Origin: Solwaraspora sp. WMMA2065
GTDB lineage: Bacteria; Actinomycetota; Actinomycetes; Mycobacteriales; Micromonosporaceae
Length of the DNA stretch: 64,000 bases
Direction of reading: 5' to 3'
NCBI RefSeq assembly: GCF_030345075.1
Contig: NZ_CP128361.1
Location: forward strand, 2,480,001-2,544,000
Position numbers and translations under genes: made by a program. Below the pieces are notes generated by a model. It worked only from the letters and a program-made list of their open reading frames with translations. It was not told the DNA's origin and did not search any database. Positions 8,699 to 22,003 of the stretch are shown in pieces (within the stretch, counting starts at the first letter, position 1; each line of letters begins with the position of its first letter).

Positions 8699-9061
8699 TC
8701 AGGTGCGCCAGACGATCAGCAGGTCGTCGGCGTCGGCACCGACGTACACCTGATCGATGGCCTCGCCGATCACTTCGGCGTCGGTGCGCGGCGGCGACAC
8801 AGCGGCCAGGTCGGGGCGGCGGCGGGCGATGGACAGGCCGACGAGCCGCTCGATCCGACCCGCGTCTACCGGGCCCAGCCGGCAACCACACGGCCCCCGG
8901 TACGCCCGACCGCCGTCAGCGGTCCGCAACGGCTGCATCCGCCGCCCACACGCCGCGCACATCAGGACCCCACGTAACGGCCACCGGTCGGACGTATCGC
9001 CGCGCTCGGGTTCCCCGACCGGTGGGCCGTCTTCTGGCAGGTCAGAGCGCAGCGAAGGCAT
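8699..9061 (-). CDS. Zinc-ribbon protein (recombinase-type zinc beta-ribbon)
   Basis: About 120 residues from the ATG at 9061, with GGAG seven bases upstream. Two Cys pairs (M-C-A-A-C-G and G-P-C-G-C-R) form a zinc ribbon, in the manner of the small zinc domains of large serine recombinases. A helical C-terminal part follows (R-I-E-R-L-V-G-L-S-I-A-R-R). It is the first gene of the zinc-ribbon/GPP34/zinc-ribbon cassette. No recombinase catalytic domain is present, so this is either a stand-alone nucleic-acid-binding protein or a domesticated remnant. Confidence 0.65.
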   Translation of the reverse strand: MPSLRSDLPEDGPPVGEPERGDTSDRWPLRGVLMCAACGRRMQPLRTADGGRAYRGPCGCRLGPVDAGRIERLVGLSIARRRPDLAAVSPPRTDAEVIGEAIDQVYVGADADDLLIVWRT

Positions 9062-9336
9062 CGAAGGACTCCTACGGGTGCACGAGGTTGGCCGGCGACG
9101 GAACGGGTGCCACCGGCACAGAGGACTGAAGATCACAGATCGTCGCGATCCAGTAACTCGCTTGGATCGACAGTGGCACGCCGAATCTGGTCCGTCAATT
9201 CTTCCATGGAAAAATCTTGCGACCATCTCGATCGGTCGGCCCTAATGATCAAGATGGATCGCGCTAGCCTGGTTGCGCCGACAGGCATGGATGGTCCAAG
9301 ATGGCGGAATCCACCTCACCCACTGTGGAGGCAGAC

Positions 9337-10194
9337 GTGCCCAAGGTCGTCGGTCCAACCATCCCGCGCTGGCAGCTCGGCGAGGAGCTCACCCGCCTAC
9401 GCCGCGCCGCCAACCTCACCGAGGCAGACGTCGCCGACAAACTCGGCTGCTCCGAGTCGAAGATCAAGAAGGTCGAGGCCGGCTACGTCGGCACCAACCG
9501 CGCCGAGCTCATGGTCATGCTCGACATGTACGGCGTCACCGACGAGGCCGCCCGCAACGACCTGATCGAGCTGCAGAAGCGCGGCAAGGAACGCGGCTGG
9601 TGGTCCAAGTTCGGCATGGTGCCCCAGCAGTTCGCGACCTTCCTCAGCCTGGAGTCCTCGGCGACCAGCATCCGCGTCTTCGAGCCGCTGATGGTCCACG
9701 GACTCCTGCAGACCGAGGACTACACCCGCGCGATCGTCTCGACGCACCTGCCGAACGCGCCCGCCGAGGAAGTCGAACGGCAGGTGCAGATCCGCCGCGC
9801 CCGCCAGGAGCGGCTCTTCGCCGACCCGCCGCAGACCTGGATCATCCTCGACGAGGCGGTCCTGCACCGCCGAGTCGGCGGCACCGACGTGATGCGCGCC
9901 CAGCTGACCCAGATCCTCGACACCGTCAAGGCTGCTCCATGGCTCACCCTCCAGGTCGTCCCGTACAGCCACGGCAGCTACCCCGGCGAGCTCGGCGCGT
10001 TCACGATTTTCGACTTCGAGGAGGACATCCACTCACCCGTCGTCTACGTGGAAGGTCAGGCCGGCGGCCTCTATCTTGAACGTGACGCGGACCTGCGTCG
10101 GTGTAACCTGGCGTACAACCACATCACGGCCGCCGCGCTCAGCCCACCCGAGAGCGCCAAGCTGATCACCGCCCTGACCCGCGCCACGGGTTGA
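9337..10194 (+). CDS. Helix-turn-helix regulator with DUF5753 domain
   Basis: About 285 residues. I chose the GTG at 9337 because GGAGG lies five bases upstream and the product then begins P-K-V-V-G-P-T-I-P-R-W-Q-L-G, the usual family start. An ATG at 9301 lacks a ribosome site. Residues 15-70 form an XRE-type helix-turn-helix (TEADVADKLGCSESKIKKVE). The rest is the DUF5753 domain with its E-P-L-M-V-H-G-L-L-Q-T-E-D-Y core. Such regulators in actinomycetes act with a small DUF397 partner, which is encoded 17 bases downstream. Confidence 0.88.
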   Translation: MPKVVGPTIPRWQLGEELTRLRRAANLTEADVADKLGCSESKIKKVEAGYVGTNRAELMVMLDMYGVTDEAARNDLIELQKRGKERGWWSKFGMVPQQFATFLSLESSATSIRVFEPLMVHGLLQTEDYTRAIVSTHLPNAPAEEVERQVQIRRARQERLFADPPQTWIILDEAVLHRRVGGTDVMRAQLTQILDTVKAAPWLTLQVVPYSHGSYPGELGAFTIFDFEEDIHSPVVYVEGQAGGLYLERDADLRRCNLAYNHITAAALSPPESAKLITALTRATG

Positions 10195-10211
10195 CCGACG
10201 AGGAGCAGCAC

Positions 10212-10421
10212 GTGACCCCCGACCTCGACCTCAGCACTGCCGTCTGGCACAAGAGCAGGAAGTCATCCGCGAACGGTGGCTGCGTCGAGGTCGCCAACCT
10301 GGGTCAGGCGTACGCGCTCCGCGACTCCAAGAACCCGGACGGTCCGGTCCTGATCTTCACCCCCGAGGAGTGGGACTGTTTCCTCGACGGCGCAGAAAAG
10401 GGCGAGTTCCGCCAGCTCTGA
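10212..10421 (+). CDS. DUF397 protein, partner of the DUF5753 regulator
   Basis: 69 residues. The GTG at 10212 has GAGGAG seven bases upstream, which decides the start. A TTG at 10191, overlapping the previous stop, would be an alternative. The product shows the DUF397 signature: W-H-K-S-R-K-S-S-A-N-G-G-C-V-E-V-A, then R-D-S-K-N-P-D-G-P and F-T-P-E-E-W. DUF397 proteins are small acidic partners of DUF5753 regulators. The pair is likely one transcription unit. Confidence 0.9.
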   Translation: MTPDLDLSTAVWHKSRKSSANGGCVEVANLGQAYALRDSKNPDGPVLIFTPEEWDCFLDGAEKGEFRQL

Positions 10422-10671
10422 CCGCAACCTGCGACCGCCTACCCCGCAGACACCTCCGCCAGGTACGGCGAACAGCCACGCCATCGGCTGGCCAGTACGC
10501 GGCGGCATCTCTTCCCCTTTGCCGCTGCCGGCAATCGGCTGTCCTTGCTTAACTCAGCGATGTCGACGTCATCACCTGGGCCCAAGCCAGCGAGATCCAG
10601 CGCGAATTGCGGCCCGAGAAGACGATCGGTTTGTCGGTCGAACCCCAGCCCGTAGCGGCCGCAACCAGATT
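10422..10671. other. Intergenic region 3' of the DUF397 gene
   Basis: No complete gene can be supported. The plus frame from 10553 to 10675 reads about 40 codons of protein-like sequence (LSDVDVITWAQASEIQRELR and on) directly after an in-frame stop and has no start, so at most it is a fragment. Base composition falls from GC-rich to mixed along the stretch, marking the approach to the toxin/immunity region. Confidence 0.4.
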
Positions 10672-10836
10672 CTAGTCAATCACCCAATCGGCAATCTTCG
10701 TGGGGCGAGACCCGTCAAACATAGCCCTCAGAAATCCTTGAACCGATTCAGCATAGCGATATACCGACGCGTCGCGACCAGCAAGCAATGATCCATCGTT
10801 GGTCATGAATATTGTGAATATGAAATCCGTCCACAC
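10672..10836 (-). pseudogene. SUKH (SMI1/KNR4)-like immunity fragment
   Basis: The minus frame reads V-W-T-D-F-I-F-T-I-F, then MTNDGSLLAGRD, then ASVYRYAESVQGFLRAMFDG to a stop at 10672. The order of a buried strand, a short polar turn with A-G-R-D and a final Y-R-Y-A-E-S-V-x-x-F-L helix is what I expect at the C-terminus of SUKH/SMI1-type immunity proteins. An in-frame TAG lies just upstream at 10837-10839 and nothing recognisable precedes it, so the N-terminal two thirds are missing. It sits downstream of the toxin and its immediate immunity candidate on the same strand, in AT-richer DNA. It could be a leftover of an earlier toxin/immunity pair. Confidence 0.45.
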
Positions 10837-10890
10837 CTACCGGGCACAAACTTTTCCTAACGGCAGAGGACAGATCATCATTTTAGCGAA

Positions 10891-11253
10891 CTACAGCAAC
10901 AGAATCTTCTCAAAGAACGAAGGATCTCGATACGTTCCCTCATCCTCATGCCACACGAGAGGACCAGAGAGCACATAGTTGGCGAGTTCACCTCCAACAA
11001 TGAACAACTCAGTCCCTCCAGGAAATTCGCGGCCAGCTTGCGATTCAATTTCTGACCGCTCGCCTCCATTAGCCCTGCCAATCGTCAGGCTCTCGAAAAC
11101 TGTATCGAGCTGCATGCGAGCCACCTGCTGAAAAAGGACGTCGATCCTGGTTGAATTATCCTCGTCGCGCGAACTACGCAGAAGCAGAACCTTATGACTC
11201 ACGGAGTAGCGCCACAGCTTGAATTGGCGAGAAGACTCGAACAAAACTTCCAT
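10891..11253 (-). CDS. Candidate immunity protein for the Rhs toxin
   Basis: 120 residues from the ATG at 11253, with TAGGGA upstream, only eight bases after the Rhs stop. The sequence is mixed alpha/beta with a Y-S-V-S-H-K-V-L-L-L-R-S-S strand, an I-D-V-L-F-Q-Q-V helix and an E-L-F-I-V-G-G-E strand. I do not recognise a named family. Polymorphic toxin genes are normally followed at once by a gene protecting the producer, and this is the only gene in that position. The DNA is clearly AT-richer than the Rhs body, as is the toxin end, consistent with the two having been exchanged together. A TTG at 11280 could extend it by nine residues. Confidence 0.7.
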   Translation of the reverse strand: MEVLFESSRQFKLWRYSVSHKVLLLRSSRDEDNSTRIDVLFQQVARMQLDTVFESLTIGRANGGERSEIESQAGREFPGGTELFIVGGELANYVLSGPLVWHEDEGTYRDPSFFEKILLL

Positions 11254-11260
11254 TAGATCC

Positions 11261-11650
11261 CTACCAATTGGGTTTCGCAAGGTCCACTCGCGCGCCGGCG
11301 TGATAAAACTTGATGCTACTCCAAGTCCTGACTTCTCGTCGAACAGCTAGACCAAGCTGAGCCATTTCCCAGTCAGTAGCGCCAAAATTGCCACCTCTGC
11401 CGGCATTATAGGCATTCATGAATCTTTCTGAATGCGTAGCGCCATCCATACCGTCAAGTGCGACATGGATCGTCGTATCCTCATCCCTGATAGCATCCTT
11501 CACAGCCATCTGCCAGCCAGCCATGCCACTTTCGGGATCAACCGGCTTCAAGCCCGGATCATTGAAGGTTCTTACGTTACTCAGACCTTCGCCCCTCAGC
11601 TGGCTCGCCAACTTCTCACCATGTTCGTTAATGCCGAGAACTGCGTTGTT
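11261..11650 (-). other. C-terminal toxin module of the Rhs protein
   Basis: The last 129 codons, directly after the Hint His-Asn-Cys end. The module begins N-A-V-L-G-I-N-E-H-G-E-K-L-A and ends near K-F-Y-H-A-G-A-R-V-D-L. Its middle carries D-G-M-D-G and a T-D-W-E-M-A-Q-L-G helix. The pattern recalls a numbered polymorphic-toxin family (possibly type 27) whose activity I cannot state. A+T content rises sharply compared with the rest of the gene, as expected for a tip exchanged by recombination. Confidence 0.65.
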
Positions 11651-14600
11651 GCAGTTGTGTACAAGAACCGGCGTGTCGCCGGCAAGTACATGATACGTGT
11701 GGGTGTGGGCGACTGTCAGGTCGCGCATCTCCCGCTCGTCGCGGCGTGTCTGGACCGACACCACCGTGACCTCGCCGCGACCCGCCACCCGCAGCTTGGC
11801 ACCCGGCTTGAGGTCGCCGGCGTTGACCCATGCCTGCCGGTTGTCGTCCCAGAAGGGGTGGTTCGGTGTCGTCTCCACCACGGTGGAGGTGCCGTCGCTG
11901 GTGCGGACCCGTACGTCGGTGAGTTCGCGGTCGGTGTTGCGGTGCAGTTGGGTGACGGGTTTCGGCAGCGATGTGCCGGACACCGGGTCGGTCGCTATGA
12001 CCTGGTCGCCGACGTTGATGTCGGCGATGGGGCGGGTGGTGCCGTCGGCCATCAGCACCCGGGTGTCGGGGGCGAAGCTGTGCGTACGACAACCCGGACC
12101 CGACCCGCCACGACCACTTGAGGCGGACGGACCGGCGGTGCTGCCGCCGCGTCCCGGTGGAGCCCGCGCGGGGCCTGCACCGCCGCCCTTGCGGCCGATC
12201 AGGTTGAGTCCCGGCACCGACCCGAGGGCGGCGGCTCTGAGGTCGACCCGTCCGGTGGTGGCGGCCTGGGAGATGACATCGGAGATGCCGTTCTCCACCG
12301 CGTCACTGGCCAACCGGGCGGTAACCCCCGAGCCGGCCTTCGCGGCGATCGCCGTACCGACCTTCGCCGCGATCGCCCCACCGGCACCACCGGCCAGGCC
12401 CATGATCGCCCCCGTACCGAGCGAACCGAGCGCGTCACCGACGGAGTGGATGTCGCCCTGCGCCACATCCTTCGCCAGGTTGATCAACGCACCCGCACCC
12501 ACCATGCACGCCACCGCGCCCGCACCGGCGGTCACCGCCGTACACGCCAACCCGGCCACGACCGCGCCGGCGATCGCGGCGACCTCCAGGATGGTGTCCT
12601 TGTGCTCCACCACCCACTTCTTGGTGGCGTTCGCCGCATCCTTCACCACGCTGACGGTCTTCTTCACCACCCGGGTCGCCTTCGCCGCGACCTTCTTCGC
12701 CGCCTGCTTCACCTGGGCGACCTTCTGTTTCACCTTCTGTTTCGCCTTGGCGACCTTCTTCGCCACGTACTTCTTCGCCTGGTTGACCTTCTTCTTGACT
12801 GCCTTCTTCGCCTTGGCGTACGTCTTCTTGACCTTGTTCTTGACCTTGGCGGCCTTGGCCTTGACCTGGTTGACCTTCTTCTTCGCGGCGGTGGTCACCT
12901 TCTTCGCCGCGGTCTTCGTGACCTTCTTCGCCTTCTGGTAGGCGGCACTGCCGTAGCTCGACACGCTGGACACCGCACGACGGGTCGCACTCGACACCTT
13001 CGACGTCGCCTTCGACGCCAGCTTCGCCGCCGCCTTCAACGGGTTGCCCCAGTGCCCGGTCGGGTCGATCGTCGTCAACGGCGTGCCGTCGCCGTACTGG
13101 TAACGGTTCGCCGCGATCGAGTCCGGCACCGGGCTGTTCGCGGCCGAGTCGCGGGTGTCGAACTGGCCGGTGTCGGTGTTGTACCAGCGGGCGTGCATGT
13201 TCACCCGCGACGTGGCCGCGTCGGTCCATTCCGACTGGTAGCCCAGACTCCCGACCATCCCGGTACTGGCGACCACCTTGCCCAACGGGTCGTACGTCGT
13301 CGCCCCGGCCAGGGTGGTGCCGGTCGTCGTGAACTGACCCACCACGTCGGTGTGCAGATCCGTCCACACCAGCCGCTGCGTCCCACCCGCCGTCCCGGCC
13401 ACCACCTCACCCGACGGCCCCCGCACATACGTCGCCGTGTCGTCCGCCGCCAGGTCGTTACCGACCCCGGTGTACGCGAACCCCGGCCGCACCGCCCGAC
13501 CCAACCCGTCATAGTCGTAGGTACGCGCTGGCCCACCACCGCTGACCTGCTGGCTGTGCACCTGGCCGAACGCGTCGGCGGTCGTGGCGACCGTGCCGGC
13601 GGCGGCGAGGGTGCCACGGGCGGTGTACGTGTACGCCGTCCCGTCGGCGGTCAGCAGCCGGTTCCGCTGGTCGTAGCTGAACAGCTTGGCGCCGTTCTGC
13701 ACCCGGTTACCGGCCTTGTCGTACGCGTACACCACGGTCGCCGAACCGTTGTTCCACGACGTCAACCGGTCGGCCAGGTCGTAGCTGTAGGTGTTGGTGA
13801 CGGCGGCACCACCGAACCCGGTGGTCGTCTTCGAGGTCAGGTTGTCGTTTTCGTCCCAGCCGTAGCCGATCGCCGCGATCTGCGTACCACCGGAGGTTTT
13901 CAACGTGTCGCCGGTGAGCCGGTGCAGGTCGTCGAAGGTGAACTCCCGACGGTTGCCGGTGCCGCCGTAGGTGATCTGCGAGACCTGGGACAGGTTGTTG
14001 TACGCGTACCCCATCGTGACGCCGGCGGTCGGGTTGGTCAGGCTGGCCAGCCGCCCGGCGGTGTCGTAGCCGTAGCTGGTGGTGCCGGCCGCGTCCTGCC
14101 GGCTGGCCAGCTGCCCGCTGCCGTTGTACGTGAACGTCGAGTTGCCGACCGGGCCGCTGATCGACAGCGGCAGGTCCCGGTCGTCGTAGCTGATCGTGTT
14201 GGTGCCACCGCCGCCGGAGAACTCGGTCATCCGGCCGCCGAGGTCGTAGTCGAAGACCCGGTCGACGGTCGTCGCCTCCGCGCCGGAGCCTTCCTGACGC
14301 AGCAGCTGGCCCATCTCGTCGTACTCGCTGCTGATCGTCACCCCGCCGGGCAGGAACTGGGTCACCGGTCGGCCGGCGGCGTCGTAGGCGACGCTGAACG
14401 TCCGGTCGGCCGCCGCCGGGTGCGCGGAGGTCGACGGCTCGATCTGCTCCTCCGGCAGATGCCACGGGTTGTACCCGGTCCAGAAGGCGTTGCCCCGCCC
14501 GTCGGTGAACCGGGTCCGGTTGCCGGACAGGTCGTAGCCGAACGTGGTGACGATGTCGTCGGAGCCGGAGATCGGCTGGGTGTGCTTCGTGAGCGCACCG

Positions 14601-17600
14601 GTGGCGTCGTACTCGAAGGTGGCGGTGGTGCCGCGCCCGTCGGTCGCGGCGGTCACGTTGCCGGCCCGGTCGTAGCTGGTGGTCTCCCGCACCAGCTGCA
14701 CACCGGACGCGTCGTACGAGGCGGTGGCCAGGACCCGGCCGGTCAGGTCGTAGTGGGTGTTGCTGTAGCTGTCGTCGGGCAGCGTGGTCCGGACCGCCCG
14801 GCCTGCACCGTCGTAGGTGTACCCGGTGGTGTTGCCGGCCCCGTCGGTGACGGTCAGCGGCTGCCCGACGGCGTTGTACGTCACGGCGGTGGTCACCCCG
14901 GTCGGGTCGGTCACCTGGGCGAGCCGGCCCCCCGGGCCGTAGCTGTACGTGGTGGTGTGGTTGGTGCCGGTCTGCCGGACCACGTCGGTGCTGGTGACCT
15001 GCCGGCCCAGGTAGTCGTAGGTGGAGCTGGCCACCGCGCCGGTCGGGTCGGTGGTGGTCAGCAGGTCCCCGGCGAGGTTGTACGTGTAGCGGGTGGTGCC
15101 GTCGTTCGGGGTGACCACCTTGGTCAGCCGGCCCAGCTGGTCGTAGGTGTACTCGGTGGTCTCGTCGAACGGGTCGGTGACCGAGGCCACCTGCCCCGAC
15201 GCGTCGTAGCTGTAGGTGATCTCCGGGGTGATCGGGGTGGCCGACCCCGGCGGGGTGTACGCCGGCAACTGCTCACCGGCCACCCGGCCGTCGGCGTCGT
15301 AGCTGGTCACCGACCAGTTGCCGGACGGGTCGAGGGTGTCGGTGACCTCGTCGAACGTGTTGTAGCCGACCCAGGAGGCGGCGTTGGCCAGCACCGGCGA
15401 CGGGCTGTCGACCGACTGGGCGTACGCCGCCGGGGCGGTGGTCTTGACCGCGTTGCCGCCCTCGTCGTAGGTGATGTAGGTGGTGTCGCCGTTGGCGTCG
15501 GTGGCCGCGACGACCTCGCCATTGTCGTCGACCTGGTAGCTCTCCCGCACCACGTGGGCGTCGGCTGCCGGTGCGGTGCCGCCGTGCACGGCGGCGACCT
15601 CGGTCGGGCTGAGCGCCTTCTGGTACGCCTGCACGTCGCTGATCTCACCGGGCCAGAAGTTGCCCCGGGATCCGTTCCACATGCCGGCACCGACGACGAA
15701 CGTGCCGCGGGCGGTGAACGGCTTCGCGCCGCTCTGGCTGCCTTCCAGGGCACCGTCGACGTAGATGCTGATGGTGCCGGTGGCCGCGTCGTACGTCCCG
15801 GCCAGGTGGGTCCAGGTGTTCAGCGCCGGGGTGCTGGTGGACACGACGGTGACCGGTTGCGTCACGTCCGGCGCGTCGAGGGTGCTGGTCCGCAGCCGCC
15901 AGCGGTCGGCGTCCTTGTCGTAGGCCAGGTCGAACGGGGTCTGCTGCTCGCCGTTGGCGGCGACCGCCTTACGCAGGTCACCCTTGTCGGTCAGGTACAC
16001 CCAGGCGGCCACGGTGAAGCTGCGTCCGGTGTCGATGACCGGGCCGTCGCTTTCGATGACCGAGCTGATGCCGTTGAAGCCGGCCGCTCCGCCGTTGCCG
16101 GTGGTCCACCACATGCCGGGGACGGCCGTGCCGGGGCTGTTGCCGGCGGAGTCGGCGGCGGCGACCCCGGCGGTCTCGTCGAGCCGCCAGCGCAGCACCG
16201 GGGTGGGGTCGGCGATCGACGGGTACTCGGTCTCGGCGAGCACCTCGCCGGCCGGGTCGTACAGGGTTTCGCTGAAGCCGACCGTTGCGCCGCCGGCGTC
16301 GGCGTGCCGTTCGGTGACCACGTTGTCGTCGGCGTCGTAGCCGTAGTGGGTGGTGCGCTTCAGCCCGTCCGGGTCGACCGTGGTCGACGTCTCCCGGCCG
16401 GCGGCGTCATAGGTGTACGTGACGACGGTCGCGCCGTCGTCGGTGACCTCCCGGACCAGGTTGCCGGCCGCGTCGTACTCGTTCGACTCGACGACGAACG
16501 ACGAACTGCCGTCGGTGCGGGTGACGTCGGCGATCAGCCCGTTGTCGGTGTACGTGTACTCGGTGGTCCAGCCCATCGGGTCGGTCTCGGCGGCCAGCCG
16601 CCTGGCCGGGTCGTACGACTTCGCCGAGATCAGCACGTCGGTGGCGGGCTGCGGGTCGTCCGGGTCGCCGGTGAAGCCGACCACCGTCGTGGTCAGCAGG
16701 TTGCCTTCGGCGTCGTACGTGTTGGTGGTGACGCCGCCGTCGTGGTCGGTCTCGGTGACCACCCGGCCGTACGCGTCGTAGCCGAGGGTGGTGACCGTGC
16801 CGCCCGGGGTGGTCGAGGTCGCCTGCTGGCCGTACTGGTTGTAGGTGTGCTGCTCGGTGCGCGACGCGTCGCCGCCGGTCAGGTCGGCGACGGTCTCGGC
16901 GAGCACGTTGCCGTCGTCGTCGTAGGTGTAGGTGGTGCGGGCGGTGTGCACCGCGCCGGTGACCCGGTTGGTGACCGCCGGCCCGGTCTCGGTCGCCACC
17001 CGCCCGGCCGCGTCGTACGTGTAGGTGGTGGTCAGCCCGGCCGGGAAGGTGTCGCTGAGCTCCGTCTCGGTCAGGGTGCGACCCAACCCGTCGTACGTGA
17101 ACCGGTCGATCTTGCCGCTCGGGTCGGTGACCTGGGCGACGTCGCCGTTGGCGTAGTACTCGACGGTCTGCACCGCGCCGCCCGGGGTGGTGACCCGGGT
17201 CGGCAGGCCGGCCGGGGCGATCCCACCGCCGTACGCGGCGGTGCTGGTGCCGTCGGTGTAGCCGGTGGTGGTGACCCGGCCGAGCGGGTCGGTGATGGTG
17301 GTCTGGTTGCCGCTGGTGTCGTAGCCGTACGACGTACGGTAGGTGTCGTCGGTCTCCGACGCCGACCGCCCGTCGCGGACGGTGAGCAGCAGGTCGTTGC
17401 GGGCGTCCGGGGTCAGCGTCGTGGTCGTCGCGTCCGGGTAGTAGGTGTAGTAGACCGACGAGCACTTGTCGGCTGACTGGTCCTGGCAGCTGACGCTCTG
17501 CTTGGTGTTGCCGCGCACGTCCTGGAAGGTCTGCGTCCACACCCCGCGCGGGTCGTAGACCAGGCTGTTGTAGCCGCCGACGTCGTAGCCGAACTTGGTG

Positions 17601-20600
17601 ACGTTGCCGAGCGCGTCGGTCTGCGCCACCGGCCGGCCGCCGTTGACCAGGTCGTAGCTGTAGGAGACGGTCTCGCCGGTGGGGCCGGTGACGGCGACCT
17701 GGGACACCGGCATCGGGATCGCGGTGGCCACCCCGGAGATCATCGTGACGGCGACCGGGGCGGTCTGCTGCGACGCCGCGTAGTGGGCGGTGACCTGCGT
17801 CTGGCTGAGCTCGCTGGTGAAGAACGCCGCTTCGGCGATCTGCCCCGGAAAGTAGCTGATGTCCCCGGAGGTCGACGGCCAGGTGCTCGGGGTGAAGCCG
17901 GTACCGAGGTACGCGTAGGCGGCCGGGGTGGTCTGGCCGCCGTAGTTGAGCGTGCCGACGAGGGTCCCGTCGAGGTAGAGCCGCTGGGTGCTGGCGGACA
18001 GGGTCATCGCGACGTGGTGCCAGTTGCCGTCACGGACACTGCCGGTGGTGGTGATCGGCGGATGGGTGTTGCCGCACCAGCACCACTTGCCGCGCAGTTT
18101 GCCGTCGGCGCCGACGTACAGCGCGGGAATCCGCTCGTTGGCGACGAGACCGCTGGTGATCGAGTTGGTCTGGAAGCTGTAGAGAACACCGCTGGAGGTG
18201 CCGCCGGTGGGCATCCTGAACCACATCGACACCGACGCCGGATCGGTGCCGCCGATGCGTTCCGGTGGCAACTCGACGTACGAGCTGGTGCCGTTGAAGG
18301 AGGCGGCGGTGGCACCGGCGAACGGGCCGTCCGCGCCGAGGGTCACCTGGTTGTAGGTGGCGACGCCACCGTCGACCTGGTTGACCGCCTCGGTCACCGC
18401 CACCTCGCCGAGACGCCAGTAGTCGGCCGGTTTGGCGCCGAGCACCGACGCGGCGTACACGTCGGCGCTGCCGGCGACGGTCGGGGTGCCCATCGTCCAG
18501 ACGCCGCCGTTCTCGTCGGTGACGGTGGCGACCCGGCCGGTGGTGCCCTGGTAGGTGACCTGCGCGGTGACGCCGCCGGTCGGCCGGGTCACCGTCGACA
18601 GCACCGGATGGGTACGGGTGCCGGCGGCGTGCAGGGCGGCGACGGTGGCCGCCGGCAACGCCTGGTTGTGGAACGCCACGTCGGAGATCGAGCCGGAGAA
18701 GTAGCTGGCCGCAGCCGGGCTGACCCCGCTGTTCTGGTGGCCGGGCCAGTTGCCGCCGATGAAGCCGGCGCCGACGTGGATGTTGTCGGCGTTGTCGGGC
18801 AGCTGCATGATGATGCCGCCGAGGCTGCCCTGGGCGACGCCGTCGAGGTAGAGGGTCTGCGTGCTGCCGGCCCCGGCGAGCGCCACGTGGTGCCAGTCGC
18901 CGTCGTTGACCGGCGCGGCGGTGGTGATCGCGGCGGCGGCGTTGCCCTGCCAGAACTGGCCGCGCAGCTTGCCGTCGCTGCCGACGTACAGCGCCGGCAC
19001 GTAGGTGGTGGGTGTGGTGCCGGCGGTGACCGGCGCGGCGCTGTAGCCGAACAGCACGCCGTTGACGGCGGTGGTGCGGAACCACATGCTGACCGTCTGG
19101 TACTGGCCGTCGGCGACCAGGTCGCCCGGCAGCTGCAGGTACGACGAGGTGCCGTCGAAGGCGGCGACGGTGGCGGTCGAGCCGGGGCGGGCAGCCGGCT
19201 GGCCGAGGGTCACTGCGGCGTACCGGGCGTTGTCGATGCCGGCGTTGGTGAGCACCGCGCTGCGGGCCACCGTTGCCGCAGACGGCTCCGACAGCGGCCA
19301 GTACGAGTACGGCCCGGTGTCCAGCACCGTGTTGGCGTACGGGGAGATGGTGGTGTGGCTGTAACCGTGGCAGGCGCTCGGGCCGGTCGGCGGGCAGACC
19401 CGCGTCAGGGTGTCGTCCGGGCCGTACCCGTACTGCCAGGTTTCGGCGCTGGCCGGGATGCCCGGATCGGCCGGGTCGGTGGCGACGGTGGTGACGTGCG
19501 GGTGGGCCGACCCGGTCGGGGTGTCCCAGGTCAGCCACAGCGAGCGGCCGGCGGCGCTGGTGATCCGGCTGGCCAGCCCGCCCGTGTAGTCGACGGTCAG
19601 GGTGCGGCCGTTGGCGTCGGTGACCGCGGTCAGCCGGAACACGCCGCCGCCGGCGGACTGCCCGAACGTGTAGACGGAGGCGTCCTTGTCGGTCAGCGTA
19701 TAGCCGGTCAGGGTGGTGCCGCTGCGGGTCTCGGCGAAGGTGGCGAACCGGCCGGACGGTGCGGTGAACGTGCCGTCGGCGTTGCGGCCGAACGCGATGT
19801 CCTGCCCGGTCGGATAGGTGACCAGCACCGACTGGACGCTGCCGGTGGCGTCCGGCACAGCGGTGGCCCGCACGTCGAGCAGGCTCGACCAGCCGGTGCC
19901 GAACGCCGACGTACGCCGGGTGTCCAGGCTGTTGTAGCTGCGGGTGATGCTCAGTGACGGGCCGACGGTGGCGACCGTCGCGTCGGTCGCCGAGGTGGTG
20001 TAGTTGCCGATGCCCGGGTCGTATCCTTTGCCGGCGTTCTGGCTGAGGTTGCCGGCCAGGGTGGGTTGCGGCACGCCGGTGGTGAACGCGTACGCCGGGT
20101 ATACGGCGCTGTAGCTCACCTGGTCGTGCACCCGGACCGTGTAGAGGTAGGTCTTGTTCCAGGCCAGGGTGCCGCTCGGTACCCGCCACGACGGGCTCGT
20201 CACCCAGCCGGAGTTGGCCACCACGGTGGTGCCGGTGCTGTCGTAGACGACGTATTGGTGGCGCAGCCCCTGGTTGGGCCAGGCGTCCGGGTCCTTGGAC
20301 CGGACCAGCAGTTCCGGGGTCAGCGTCGGAGTCACCGCGTTGTTCGCCGGGTAGCGGACGTTGACCTGCGGCGCGACGTTGTCGGTGTAGGTCAGCTCGA
20401 CGTACGGCTTGTAGGCGCCGCCGCCGTAGTTGGCCGAGGTGAACCGCTTCCAGCCGTTGGAATCGGTCTCCGAGGCGGTCAGCGCCAGTCCGTGGTTGGT
20501 CCCGCCGGTGGACCAGTCGTTGAAGGTGGCGACGTTCAGCGGCACGGTCACCCACTTGCCGACACTGCGGTCGCCGGAGGTGTTCTGGCAGGACGGATAG

Positions 20601-22003
20601 TTGTCGGTGACGGTCAGCGAGCCGATCGAGCTGGAGATCGCCGGGCCGGGGTGGCTGGCGGTGGACAGGTTCGCCACCGTCCACGCCTGGTTGACCCGGT
20701 GCACGGAGAAGGCCCGATGCTCGGAGCAGCTGTAGGCCCAGGTCAGGTAAAGCTTCAGTTTGGCGGCGGTGATCCGCTTGCCGATGAACCCGTCGTCGTC
20801 GAACTCGTCGAAGTGGATGAACGAGCGGGCCTTGACGCCGCCGCCGTCGTAGGTGCCGACCGGCAGGTTGTCGCCGTTGTGGTTGGTGGTCGTGGTGTCG
20901 CTGTCGACGTACACGTCGCCGGTGGTGCCGGTGGTGGCGGTCGGGTCCACCCGGACGGGGTAGACCCGGGCCGGGTCGTCCAGCCAGGCCCGGTCGGCGG
21001 TGACCTTCAGCGCCTGGCCGCCGCCGGGCTGGTCGACCAACTCGAACTCGACGTCGGGTGACTGGGCGGGTGCGCCGGACTGCGGGTGGACGTTGCTGTC
21101 CTCCATGAACCCGCGCGGGAACCAGACCCGGGCGGTGCCGTCGGCGTCGACCAGCTCCACCCAGCCTTCGGCGGTGAGCCGGGGCGTCAGCCCGGTCAGG
21201 TCGAGCGGGAACGTCCAGGTCGACGGGGCCTGCGGTGAATGCAGGATCAACGTCTCCTTGAGCCCGGCGTCGAAGGTGATCAACTCCAGGTCGGTGTGCG
21301 GCAGGATTTCCCGGTAGGTGGCGGTGTTGCCGTCGGTCTCGGCGGCGACGTCGGCGGCACCGTCGAGTTCGTAGGCGACCCGCTTTCCGTCGGGCAGTGC
21401 CAGCACCCCGAGGTCGGTGTCGCCGGTGCTGCCGGCGACGCTCACCTGCAGGCTGTTGGCCCGCATGTGCAGCCGCCCGTCGCGGCGCTCGACCAGGTCG
21501 GTGTCGATCGGGCGCCAGCTACCGTCGGCGGCCCGGTAGTTGACCGGTCGGCTGTAGGTGCGCACCGTCGTGGAACCGTCGGCGTTGTCGTAGACGTCGG
21601 TGCGGGCGGTGGCCTCGTCGGCGTCCCGGCGGCTGGTCGCCGCGTCGAATCCGGGCTCGGCGACACCGGTCGGGGTGGTCGGTGCCGTCGGGTCGTGCGG
21701 CTGGTACGGCGGCAGTGTGTCGGCTGCCTGGCTGACCCGGCGGCCCGCGCCGCCGGCCGCGGTGGTCTCCCCGGCCGGCACGTGGTGCTCGCCGGTGAAC
21801 GGTGCCGGGCCGGCCATCACCGGCGCGCCGAGGGCGGCTGCCGCTGCCGACCACAACGGACGGTTGACCGCCCACGACCACAGCCACGACGTCGGCCAGG
21901 AGTCGGGCGGTACTGCACCGGCCGGCACCACCACGGTCAGTCCGAAGAGCAGCAGCGTCAGGGTCGCGATCCGGCGGGACGCACGACTGATGGCACGGCG
22001 CAT
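11261..22003 (-). CDS. Giant secreted Rhs/YD-repeat polymorphic toxin with LamG and Hint domains
   Basis: 3580 residues from the ATG at 22003. A signal peptide covers 1-31 (RIATLTLLLFGLTVVVPAGA). Then in order: a DNRLRE-like region at about 355-540; a DUF6531-like N-P-x-x-G segment at about 660-712; three LamG/concanavalin-like domains at about 918-1128, 1215-1405 and 1942-2142. YD repeats lie between and after them up to about 2920, followed by the Rhs core end (A-R-W-Y-N-T-D-T-G-Q-F-D-T-R-D and Y-G-D-G-T-P) at about 2940-2990. A Lys/Ala-rich segment occupies about 3015-3135 and a glycine-rich hydrophobic segment about 3135-3225. A Hint domain spans 3305-3451 and ends L-V-H-N-C, and a 129-residue toxin domain closes the protein. 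The YD shell should encapsulate the toxin, and Hint should release it. An immunity candidate follows at once. Confidence 0.93.
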   Translation of the reverse strand: MRRAISRASRRIATLTLLLFGLTVVVPAGAVPPDSWPTSWLWSWAVNRPLWSAAAAALGAPVMAGPAPFTGEHHVPAGETTAAGGAGRRVSQAADTLPPYQPHDPTAPTTPTGVAEPGFDAATSRRDADEATARTDVYDNADGSTTVRTYSRPVNYRAADGSWRPIDTDLVERRDGRLHMRANSLQVSVAGSTGDTDLGVLALPDGKRVAYELDGAADVAAETDGNTATYREILPHTDLELITFDAGLKETLILHSPQAPSTWTFPLDLTGLTPRLTAEGWVELVDADGTARVWFPRGFMEDSNVHPQSGAPAQSPDVEFELVDQPGGGQALKVTADRAWLDDPARVYPVRVDPTATTGTTGDVYVDSDTTTTNHNGDNLPVGTYDGGGVKARSFIHFDEFDDDGFIGKRITAAKLKLYLTWAYSCSEHRAFSVHRVNQAWTVANLSTASHPGPAISSSIGSLTVTDNYPSCQNTSGDRSVGKWVTVPLNVATFNDWSTGGTNHGLALTASETDSNGWKRFTSANYGGGAYKPYVELTYTDNVAPQVNVRYPANNAVTPTLTPELLVRSKDPDAWPNQGLRHQYVVYDSTGTTVVANSGWVTSPSWRVPSGTLAWNKTYLYTVRVHDQVSYSAVYPAYAFTTGVPQPTLAGNLSQNAGKGYDPGIGNYTTSATDATVATVGPSLSITRSYNSLDTRRTSAFGTGWSSLLDVRATAVPDATGSVQSVLVTYPTGQDIAFGRNADGTFTAPSGRFATFAETRSGTTLTGYTLTDKDASVYTFGQSAGGGVFRLTAVTDANGRTLTVDYTGGLASRITSAAGRSLWLTWDTPTGSAHPHVTTVATDPADPGIPASAETWQYGYGPDDTLTRVCPPTGPSACHGYSHTTISPYANTVLDTGPYSYWPLSEPSAATVARSAVLTNAGIDNARYAAVTLGQPAARPGSTATVAAFDGTSSYLQLPGDLVADGQYQTVSMWFRTTAVNGVLFGYSAAPVTAGTTPTTYVPALYVGSDGKLRGQFWQGNAAAAITTAAPVNDGDWHHVALAGAGSTQTLYLDGVAQGSLGGIIMQLPDNADNIHVGAGFIGGNWPGHQNSGVSPAAASYFSGSISDVAFHNQALPAATVAALHAAGTRTHPVLSTVTRPTGGVTAQVTYQGTTGRVATVTDENGGVWTMGTPTVAGSADVYAASVLGAKPADYWRLGEVAVTEAVNQVDGGVATYNQVTLGADGPFAGATAASFNGTSSYVELPPERIGGTDPASVSMWFRMPTGGTSSGVLYSFQTNSITSGLVANERIPALYVGADGKLRGKWCWCGNTHPPITTTGSVRDGNWHHVAMTLSASTQRLYLDGTLVGTLNYGGQTTPAAYAYLGTGFTPSTWPSTSGDISYFPGQIAEAAFFTSELSQTQVTAHYAASQQTAPVAVTMISGVATAIPMPVSQVAVTGPTGETVSYSYDLVNGGRPVAQTDALGNVTKFGYDVGGYNSLVYDPRGVWTQTFQDVRGNTKQSVSCQDQSADKCSSVYYTYYPDATTTTLTPDARNDLLLTVRDGRSASETDDTYRTSYGYDTSGNQTTITDPLGRVTTTGYTDGTSTAAYGGGIAPAGLPTRVTTPGGAVQTVEYYANGDVAQVTDPSGKIDRFTYDGLGRTLTETELSDTFPAGLTTTYTYDAAGRVATETGPAVTNRVTGAVHTARTTYTYDDDGNVLAETVADLTGGDASRTEQHTYNQYGQQATSTTPGGTVTTLGYDAYGRVVTETDHDGGVTTNTYDAEGNLLTTTVVGFTGDPDDPQPATDVLISAKSYDPARRLAAETDPMGWTTEYTYTDNGLIADVTRTDGSSSFVVESNEYDAAGNLVREVTDDGATVVTYTYDAAGRETSTTVDPDGLKRTTHYGYDADDNVVTERHADAGGATVGFSETLYDPAGEVLAETEYPSIADPTPVLRWRLDETAGVAAADSAGNSPGTAVPGMWWTTGNGGAAGFNGISSVIESDGPVIDTGRSFTVAAWVYLTDKGDLRKAVAANGEQQTPFDLAYDKDADRWRLRTSTLDAPDVTQPVTVVSTSTPALNTWTHLAGTYDAATGTISIYVDGALEGSQSGAKPFTARGTFVVGAGMWNGSRGNFWPGEISDVQAYQKALSPTEVAAVHGGTAPAADAHVVRESYQVDDNGEVVAATDANGDTTYITYDEGGNAVKTTAPAAYAQSVDSPSPVLANAASWVGYNTFDEVTDTLDPSGNWSVTSYDADGRVAGEQLPAYTPPGSATPITPEITYSYDASGQVASVTDPFDETTEYTYDQLGRLTKVVTPNDGTTRYTYNLAGDLLTTTDPTGAVASSTYDYLGRQVTSTDVVRQTGTNHTTTYSYGPGGRLAQVTDPTGVTTAVTYNAVGQPLTVTDGAGNTTGYTYDGAGRAVRTTLPDDSYSNTHYDLTGRVLATASYDASGVQLVRETTSYDRAGNVTAATDGRGTTATFEYDATGALTKHTQPISGSDDIVTTFGYDLSGNRTRFTDGRGNAFWTGYNPWHLPEEQIEPSTSAHPAAADRTFSVAYDAAGRPVTQFLPGGVTISSEYDEMGQLLRQEGSGAEATTVDRVFDYDLGGRMTEFSGGGGTNTISYDDRDLPLSISGPVGNSTFTYNGSGQLASRQDAAGTTSYGYDTAGRLASLTNPTAGVTMGYAYNNLSQVSQITYGGTGNRREFTFDDLHRLTGDTLKTSGGTQIAAIGYGWDENDNLTSKTTTGFGGAAVTNTYSYDLADRLTSWNNGSATVVYAYDKAGNRVQNGAKLFSYDQRNRLLTADGTAYTYTARGTLAAAGTVATTADAFGQVHSQQVSGGGPARTYDYDGLGRAVRPGFAYTGVGNDLAADDTATYVRGPSGEVVAGTAGGTQRLVWTDLHTDVVGQFTTTGTTLAGATTYDPLGKVVASTGMVGSLGYQSEWTDAATSRVNMHARWYNTDTGQFDTRDSAANSPVPDSIAANRYQYGDGTPLTTIDPTGHWGNPLKAAAKLASKATSKVSSATRRAVSSVSSYGSAAYQKAKKVTKTAAKKVTTAAKKKVNQVKAKAAKVKNKVKKTYAKAKKAVKKKVNQAKKYVAKKVAKAKQKVKQKVAQVKQAAKKVAAKATRVVKKTVSVVKDAANATKKWVVEHKDTILEVAAIAGAVVAGLACTAVTAGAGAVACMVGAGALINLAKDVAQGDIHSVGDALGSLGTGAIMGLAGGAGGAIAAKVGTAIAAKAGSGVTARLASDAVENGISDVISQAATTGRVDLRAAALGSVPGLNLIGRKGGGAGPARAPPGRGGSTAGPSASSGRGGSGPGCRTHSFAPDTRVLMADGTTRPIADINVGDQVIATDPVSGTSLPKPVTQLHRNTDRELTDVRVRTSDGTSTVVETTPNHPFWDDNRQAWVNAGDLKPGAKLRVAGRGEVTVVSVQTRRDEREMRDLTVAHTHTYHVLAGDTPVLVHNCNNAVLGINEHGEKLASQLRGEGLSNVRTFNDPGLKPVDPESGMAGWQMAVKDAIRDEDTTIHVALDGMDGATHSERFMNAYNAGRGGNFGATDWEMAQLGLAVRREVRTWSSIKFYHAGARVDLAKPNW

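What the first reader, a model, noticed from the sequence alone, without database searches (positions are those of the whole stretch)
11261..11650. Exchangeable toxin tip on a giant Rhs protein
The reading frame stays open for 10.7 kb, yet base composition shifts to AT-richer DNA exactly after the Hint end (His-Asn-Cys). The last 129 codons and the following gene share this shift. The tip and its candidate immunity gene appear to have been swapped in as a pair onto an older delivery body. The activity of the toxin is not evident from its motifs, so it may be new.
Basis: partly seen in the sequence, partly recalled or inferred. Interest (0 to 1): 0.7.

Follow-up and report, generated by a model that had tools for sequence, protein, structure and literature searches.

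The report
Swappable toxin tip with its antidote
A giant secreted bacterial weapon protein ends in a small poison domain that was swapped in together with a matching antidote gene; close relatives carry the same protein with other tips, so this is a clear example of a known arrangement, with a poison whose activity I found no test of.

Summary
In detail: one 3,580-codon frame, GC falling from 0.70 (body) to 0.53 (tip) and 0.51 (next gene), the only such stretch in the window. Three same-genus genomes carry the orthologous body (89-97% DNA identity) with three other tips. Homology breaks at 11643-11649, at the end of the Hint coding stretch, and returns at 10436-10449. The swapped cassette is about 10437-11648. 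It also holds a frameshifted tail of an older SUKH-3 immunity gene, a fossil of the previous module. The pairwise swap is supported.

"May be new" is only partly right: the tip belongs to Ntox27 (PF15531), catalogued in 2012. New here is its partner: 10891-11253 belongs to a family with no Pfam or NCBIfam model, present downstream of 15 of 19 other Ntox27 places, and a search with it found four further Ntox27-like tips. In 25 relatives T92 and E95 are invariant and D66 nearly so. A confident AlphaFold model is a Rossmann-like domain, weakly closest to TIR and deoxyribosyltransferase folds. I propose an N-glycosidase (NAD(P) or nucleotide cleaving), about 40%; fold scores are not significant and profile comparisons do not support that homology.

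The parts
11261..22003 (-). Giant Rhs polymorphic toxin gene, 3,580 aa: apparent export signal at the N-terminus (read by eye, no tool), three LamG-type stretches, DUF6531, 16 RHS-repeat stretches, RHS-associated core, Lys-rich linker, Hint, toxin tip
13052..13294 (-). RHS repeat-associated core domain, residues 2904-2984
   Evidence: TIGR03696, 44.2 bits, cut-off 32.5
11654..12052 (-). Pretoxin Hint domain, residues 3318-3450
   Evidence: PF07591, 63.3 bits, cut-off 27.7
11261..11650 (-). Toxin tip, residues 3452-3580: Ntox27
   Evidence: PF15531, 38.2 bits, cut-off 24; AlphaFold2 model pLDDT 91.5, pTM 0.86
11453..11455 (-). Codon of tip Asp66 (LDG), candidate active site
   Evidence: 24 of 25 relatives
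11366..11377 (-). Codons of tip Thr92-Asp-Trp-Glu95, candidate active site (Glu95)
   Evidence: Thr92 and Glu95 in 25 of 25 relatives
10891..11253 (-). Cognate immunity gene, 120 aa, family without a Pfam or NCBIfam model
   Evidence: model pLDDT 89.8, pTM 0.84
10675..10888 (-). Frameshifted 3'-end relic of an older SUKH-3 immunity gene
   Evidence: tblastn 53% over 68 aa, E 5e-19, plus 24 aa in another frame; blastn 72.7% over 187 nt, E 8e-24, to the G006 gene, which is SUKH-3 by Pfam. The relic itself (54-aa frame) has no Pfam match
10437..11648 (-). Variable cassette: between the points where DNA homology to three same-genus genomes ends and resumes (one short extra match, 10600-10672, to G004 inside it)
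9301..10421 (+). Flank beyond the cassette, convergent to the Rhs gene: HTH/DUF5753 regulator (9301-10194) and a short next frame (10191-10421, not scanned)

Best explanation
An Rhs-Hint polymorphic toxin whose C-terminal tip (Ntox27) and immunity gene form one exchangeable cassette. Shown by comparison: body and far flank are conserved in same-genus genomes while tip and next genes differ; one border lies at the end of the Hint coding stretch, the other behind the convergent regulator genes; a broken tail of an older SUKH-3 immunity gene remains behind the new pair; the immunity family is linked to Ntox27 in many places. Inferred from what is known of Rhs systems: the protein is exported, RHS shell and Hint present and release the tip, the tip enters a competing cell and poisons it, and the 120-aa partner binds the tip to protect the producer. 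Inferred with less support (about 40%): the tip is a Rossmann-like N-glycosidase in which Glu95 (start of a helix, TxWE) acts at the glycosidic carbon and Asp66 (just past a strand, LDG) assists, cleaving NAD(P) or nucleotides.
For: Ntox27; 11 of 11 aligned relatives hit the same family. Same body, other tips. Cassette borders. Relic. Immunity linkage, forward: 12 of 14 distinct places and 3 of 5 more. Reverse: 12 of the 30 loci that one search gave have an Ntox27-like tip directly upstream; 8 of these 12 were already known (own window included), 4 had not been reported by the Pfam search of the same 350 genomes. A second, diverged Ntox27-like tip with a matching immunity homologue sits on another Rhs-Hint protein of the same genome (tip E 3.6e-10, partner E 4.8e-11, in a small set of frames), and one in G005 (tip E 4.2e-13 alone; partner E 2.1e-9). 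Residues: D66 24/25, T92 25/25, E95 25/25. Fold; by their titles and by recall, 27 of the 30 best rows of the aligner are TIR or SEFIR domains (many are repeat entries of SARM1 and SPARTA), DNPH1 is row 21 (Z 5.2), a putative nucleoside deoxyribosyltransferase row 35 (Z 4.5).
Against: For the N-glycosidase step: best Foldseek E is 0.078, none at or below 0.001; every Z is below 8, a level that the tool says may mean only a common arrangement; the viral fold library gives nothing significant; profile-profile comparison with TIR and deoxyribosyltransferase sets gives 0.06-0.39% probability, like the response-regulator control (0.05-0.31%) and within column-shuffled nulls (20 of 60 and 16 of 60 shuffles score as high). 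For the pairing: 4 of 19 Ntox27 places have no detected homologue downstream, and 18 of the 30 loci showed no Ntox27-like upstream frame by my rough pick. Toxicity and neutralisation are untested.
Confidence: 0.85

Rival explanations
1. Same cassette, but the tip is a nuclease, as the 2012 survey suggested in general for its novel toxin domains; Asp66, Glu95 and Arg108/Trp110 would form the active site.
For: PMC3482391 says that most of its 50 novel domains are likely nucleases (passage seen) and lists D, E, RxW for Ntox27. The tip has RTW at 108-110.
Against: RxW is not constant: R108 in 18 of 25, W110 in 21 of 25. None of the 30 best fold rows is a nuclease fold by title, though all rows are weak.
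Confidence: 0.3
2. Same cassette, but the tip has another activity (for example nucleotidyl transfer, ADP-ribosyl transfer or a non-enzymatic poison); the TIR-like resemblance is a common alpha/beta arrangement.
For: No significant structural or profile match.
Against: Near-invariant D66, T92 and E95 fit an enzyme active site, so a non-enzymatic tip is less likely.
Confidence: 0.3
3. No swap: the AT-rich tip is old and drifts with the body; siblings changed theirs.
For: The comparison cannot say which of the four tips is oldest on this body.
Against: The tip is AT-rich against a 0.94 third-position GC body, and a broken SUKH-3 tail related to a sibling's immunity gene lies behind the present pair, which points to an earlier occupant in this lineage.
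Confidence: 0.06

Closest known systems
Ntox27 (Pfam PF15531), Zhang et al. 2012, PMC3482391 (passages seen)
   Same: Over the curated cut-off; alpha+beta; D, E and RxW present; C-terminal behind Hint in an RHS protein
   Different: The 2012 table lists no immunity partner; here one is found and the constant set narrows to D66, T92, E95
Polymorphic toxin cassette exchange (PMC3482391 passages; Kirchberger 2017 PMC5361080, abstract seen)
   Same: 3' tip replaced together with its immunity gene; remains of older immunity genes behind it
   Different: Here the older immunity gene is a broken, frameshifted tail rather than an intact orphan
Rhs NADase tips of Serratia (PMC10539506, passages seen) and Tac1 ADP-ribosyl cyclase toxins (PMC12356396, abstract and passages seen)
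   Same: Antibacterial tips that deplete NAD(P), the activity proposed here; the Serratia tips are exchangeable too
   Different: Those are TNT-type and CD38-type enzymes; no link to Ntox27 is claimed in the passages seen
TIR domain NADases and nucleoside deoxyribosyltransferases
   Same: Rossmann-like arrangement; weak fold similarity; a catalytic Glu near a helix start (recalled)
   Different: No significant fold score and no profile support

Membership tests
Ntox27 (PF15531) | Profile score over the curated cut-off | tested here: met
   38.2 bits for the tip alone, 28.4 within the whole protein; cut-off 24
Ntox27 (PF15531) | Conserved D, E, RxW (2012 table) | tested here: met
   Asp66, Glu95, Arg108-Thr-Trp110 in the tip
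Ntox27 (PF15531) | Toxic activity | not testable with these tools
   Needs expression
Rhs polymorphic toxin | RHS repeats, RHS-associated core and Hint before a C-terminal toxin tip | tested here: met
Rhs polymorphic toxin | Same body with different tips and immunity genes in relatives | tested here: met
   3 of 3 sibling genomes with the body
Ntox27 immunity family (named here) | Homologue downstream of Ntox27 tips | tested here: met
   15 of 19 distinct places besides the window
Ntox27 immunity family (named here) | Neutralises the tip | not testable with these tools
   Needs co-expression
TIR domain | TIR fold | tested here: inconclusive
   Best Z 7.2 (106 aligned, 3.2 A), Foldseek E 0.078
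TIR domain | Profile similarity | tested here: not met
   0.06-0.39% probability, within nulls; no TIR family among Pfam hits of the 11 relatives
Nucleoside deoxyribosyltransferase | Profile similarity | tested here: not met
   0.14-0.17% probability, within nulls
Nucleoside deoxyribosyltransferase | Fold | tested here: inconclusive
   DNPH1 Z 5.2, 4mcj Z 4.5

The most novel reading that the evidence does not exclude
Ntox27 is a further fold class of antibacterial N-glycosidase tip: a minimal secreted TIR/deoxyribosyltransferase-like enzyme (Asp66, Thr92, Glu95) that strips competitors of NAD(P) or nucleotides, held in check by a previously unnamed immunity family.
Probability: 0.35. Interest if true: 0.55.

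Novelty: new member of a known kind. Interest (0 to 1): 0.38.

Why it matters
The swap itself follows the published model of polymorphic toxins, but this locus shows it cleanly: four tips on one body within one genus, borders within tens of bases, and a fossil of the previous module. The useful new items are an unnamed immunity family linked to Ntox27 (so that the toxin can be cloned and tested with its antidote), a narrower set of candidate active-site residues, and a confident model that suggests a testable activity for a domain for which I found no functional study.

Tried and rejected
Viral contigs: two scans (tip alone, 13 pattern stretches; alignment A1, 17 stretches) gave no confirmed relative. 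Plasmids by tblastn: no match. PDB by sequence: nothing credible for the tip (best E 0.33, shikimate dehydrogenase) and no match up to E 10 for the immunity protein. Viral fold library: nothing at or below E 0.001. Immunity fold: no significant Foldseek match; the second row of the aligner is PIM7, immunity protein of a polymorphic toxin (8owu, Z 5.8, 83 aligned, 3.2 A), too weak to use, and no paper was found for it. One of 11 immunity members had a stray weak Pfam hit (SNURF, E 0.032).

TIR and deoxyribosyltransferase homology by profile comparison was tried with a response-regulator set and shuffled columns as controls and is unsupported. The N-glycosidase idea rests on weak fold similarity, motif and conserved residues only.

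Rows dropped. Of the 25 places I kept 12 (own included) as true Ntox27. Seven were read by eye and dropped as unrelated (L009, L010, L012, L014, L021, L022, L025; the first, second and third of these were over the cut-off); six were not read (L015-L018, L023, L024) and were dropped because score, profile range and an internal stop resemble the dropped ones. In the profile comparison I used 9 of 13 deoxyribosyltransferase loci (L055, L063 too short; L068, L069 not entered), 18 of 25 TIR loci (L082 too short; L088-L093 not entered) and 17 of 25 response-regulator loci. L006/L050 and L007/L051 are the same places and count once. L005, a truncated tip, is left out of the 25-row residue count but is in the 14 places. 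PHROGs and PADLOC libraries and the metagenome collection were not searched.

Full report
What is there. The minus-strand frame 11261-22003 encodes 3,580 residues. Pfam and NCBIfam show 16 RHS-repeat stretches, three LamG-type stretches, DUF6531, an RHS-associated core and a pretoxin Hint domain at residues 3318-3450. The protein begins with what looks by eye like an export signal. After ...TPVLVHNC come 129 residues; the next gene's ATG begins 7 bases past the stop codon. Two same-family contigs found by the genome search have the lengths of named contigs of Salinispora and Paractinoplanes, so the window probably comes from a relative in Micromonosporaceae (inference).

Composition. GC is 0.705 over the body, 0.526 in the tip and 0.512 in the next gene; third-position GC drops from 0.94 to 0.53. 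No other part of the window has 390-base windows this low (profile of the 9000-14500 stretch). The best change point is 11701, about 50 bases before the end of Hint.

The tip is a known family. It scores 38.2 bits for Ntox27 (PF15531), cut-off 24. The 2012 survey (PMC3482391; passages seen, not the whole text) lists Ntox27 as alpha+beta with conserved D, E and RxW, in Actinobacteria, Bacteroidetes and Fusobacteria, with no immunity protein, and says of its novel domains in general that most are likely nucleases. Searches for 'Ntox27', 'Bacterial toxin 27' and 'PF15531' gave 3, 0 and 0 papers; of the 3 I opened only the survey. The library lacks most subscription papers, so a functional study elsewhere is not excluded.

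How common. Ntox27 matched in 1 of 7 genomes of the genus, 21 of 350 of the family (13 over the cut-off), 1 of 396 drawn from the phylum and 6 of 394 drawn from the class; each set includes this genome. Of the 25 places I kept 12 after reading. A scan of named genomes gave 5 loci out of 99 pattern stretches, two of them places already held.

The swap. Of 7 genomes of the genus, 4 including this one have a full-length match to the last 547 body residues (G004 95%, G005 91%, G006 92%; the other three match in part). Over about 10.8 kb the DNA is 96.5, 89.2 and 89.2% identical. The tips differ: G006 has a YwqJ-deaminase-like tip (22.9 bits, below the cut-off of 25.9) followed by a SUKH-3 immunity gene (57 bits, cut-off 23); the G004 and G005 tips and the next genes tested have no Pfam match over a cut-off. 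All four tips are AT-richer than their bodies (0.53-0.59 against 0.70). DNA homology ends at 11643-11649 and resumes at 10436-10449, apart from one short match to G004 at 10600-10672. Identity is 0.70-0.73 in the last 30 bases before the end of the Asn codon and 0.27-0.57 in the next 30. So the exchanged unit is about 1.2 kb here. The 2012 paper describes this in words (3' cassette replacement bringing its immunity gene), and Kirchberger 2017 reports successive displacement in Vibrio (abstract seen).

A fossil of the former module. Two bases behind the new immunity gene, 10675-10888 matches the C-terminal part of the G006 SUKH-3 gene in two frames (53% over 68 residues, E 5e-19, and 24 residues in another frame; DNA 72.7% over 187 bases, E 8e-24). 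The short open piece alone has no Pfam match. The former tip in this lineage was therefore probably guarded by a SUKH-3 protein (inference).

The immunity family. Homologues of the 120-residue product lie downstream of 12 of 14 distinct Ntox27 places (L003 and L004 lack one) and 3 of 5 further ones (L059 and L061 lack one). In reverse, a profile of the family matched in 92 of 350 genomes of the family. Of the 30 loci that this call gave, 12 have an Ntox27-like tip upstream: 8 already known, 4 (L138, L140, L141, L149) not reported by the Pfam search; 18 do not, by my rough pick of the upstream frame. So the family is wider than Ntox27. Pfam and NCBIfam have no model for it at useful scores (11 members scanned). 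The same genome has a second, diverged pair on another Rhs-Hint protein (L156), and G005 has one (L159).

Mechanism. Twenty-five relatives agree on T92 and E95 (25 of 25) and D66 (24 of 25); R108 (18 of 25) and W110 (21 of 25) are less constant. AlphaFold2 on six sequences gives pLDDT 91.5 and pTM 0.86 (one of the five models only 68.3): strand, helix, helix, strand, helix, helix, strand, strand. Asp66 lies just past a strand and Thr92/Glu95 at the start of a helix. Of the best 30 rows of the structural aligner 27 are TIR or SEFIR domains (some named so by recall; many repeat entries), best Z 7.2 with 106 aligned at 3.2 A; DNPH1 has Z 5.2 and a putative deoxyribosyltransferase Z 4.5. These values lie where a common arrangement suffices; Foldseek finds nothing significant; profile comparison is negative against controls. 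By eye, 5 of 25 relatives read LDG ... GTAWE(L/M) where one deoxyribosyltransferase (L062) reads LNG ... GTAWEL; that Glu is catalytic in that family by recall. I commit to an N-glycosidase acting on NAD(P) or nucleotides at about 40%, nuclease 30%, other 30%.

Verdict. Added here: the partner family, the relic, a narrower active-site set and a testable activity.

Noticed in passing
L156 (G000:C1, about 4196350-4196930, outside the window): A second, diverged Ntox27-like tip (GC 0.53) with a homologous immunity gene on another Rhs-Hint protein of the same genome.
   Followed up: partly
L047/L158 (G005:C1, about 3409097-3409762): A truncated fragment of the same Rhs body (89-90% identical) lies on the opposite strand just upstream of the Rhs gene of G005 and stops before the Hint domain.
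   Followed up: no
L046 (G004 tip): Tip without a Pfam match; by eye an FDG...IDRK stretch that recalls restriction-endonuclease-like toxin tips (recalled, untested).
   Followed up: no
L047 (G005 tip): Tip without a Pfam match; by eye HAE ... PCG....C, a deaminase-like motif (recalled, untested).
   Followed up: no
L054:2802-3566: Two tandem members of the new immunity family behind one Ntox27 tip in a Streptomyces contig.
   Followed up: no
window 12600-12960: A very Lys/Ala-rich linker between the RHS core and the Hint domain (about residues 3015-3135).
   Followed up: no
L129, L132-L137, L139, L142-L148, L150-L152: Eighteen loci with a member of the immunity family but no Ntox27-like tip in the upstream frame I picked: orphans, partners of other toxins, or another function.
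   Followed up: no
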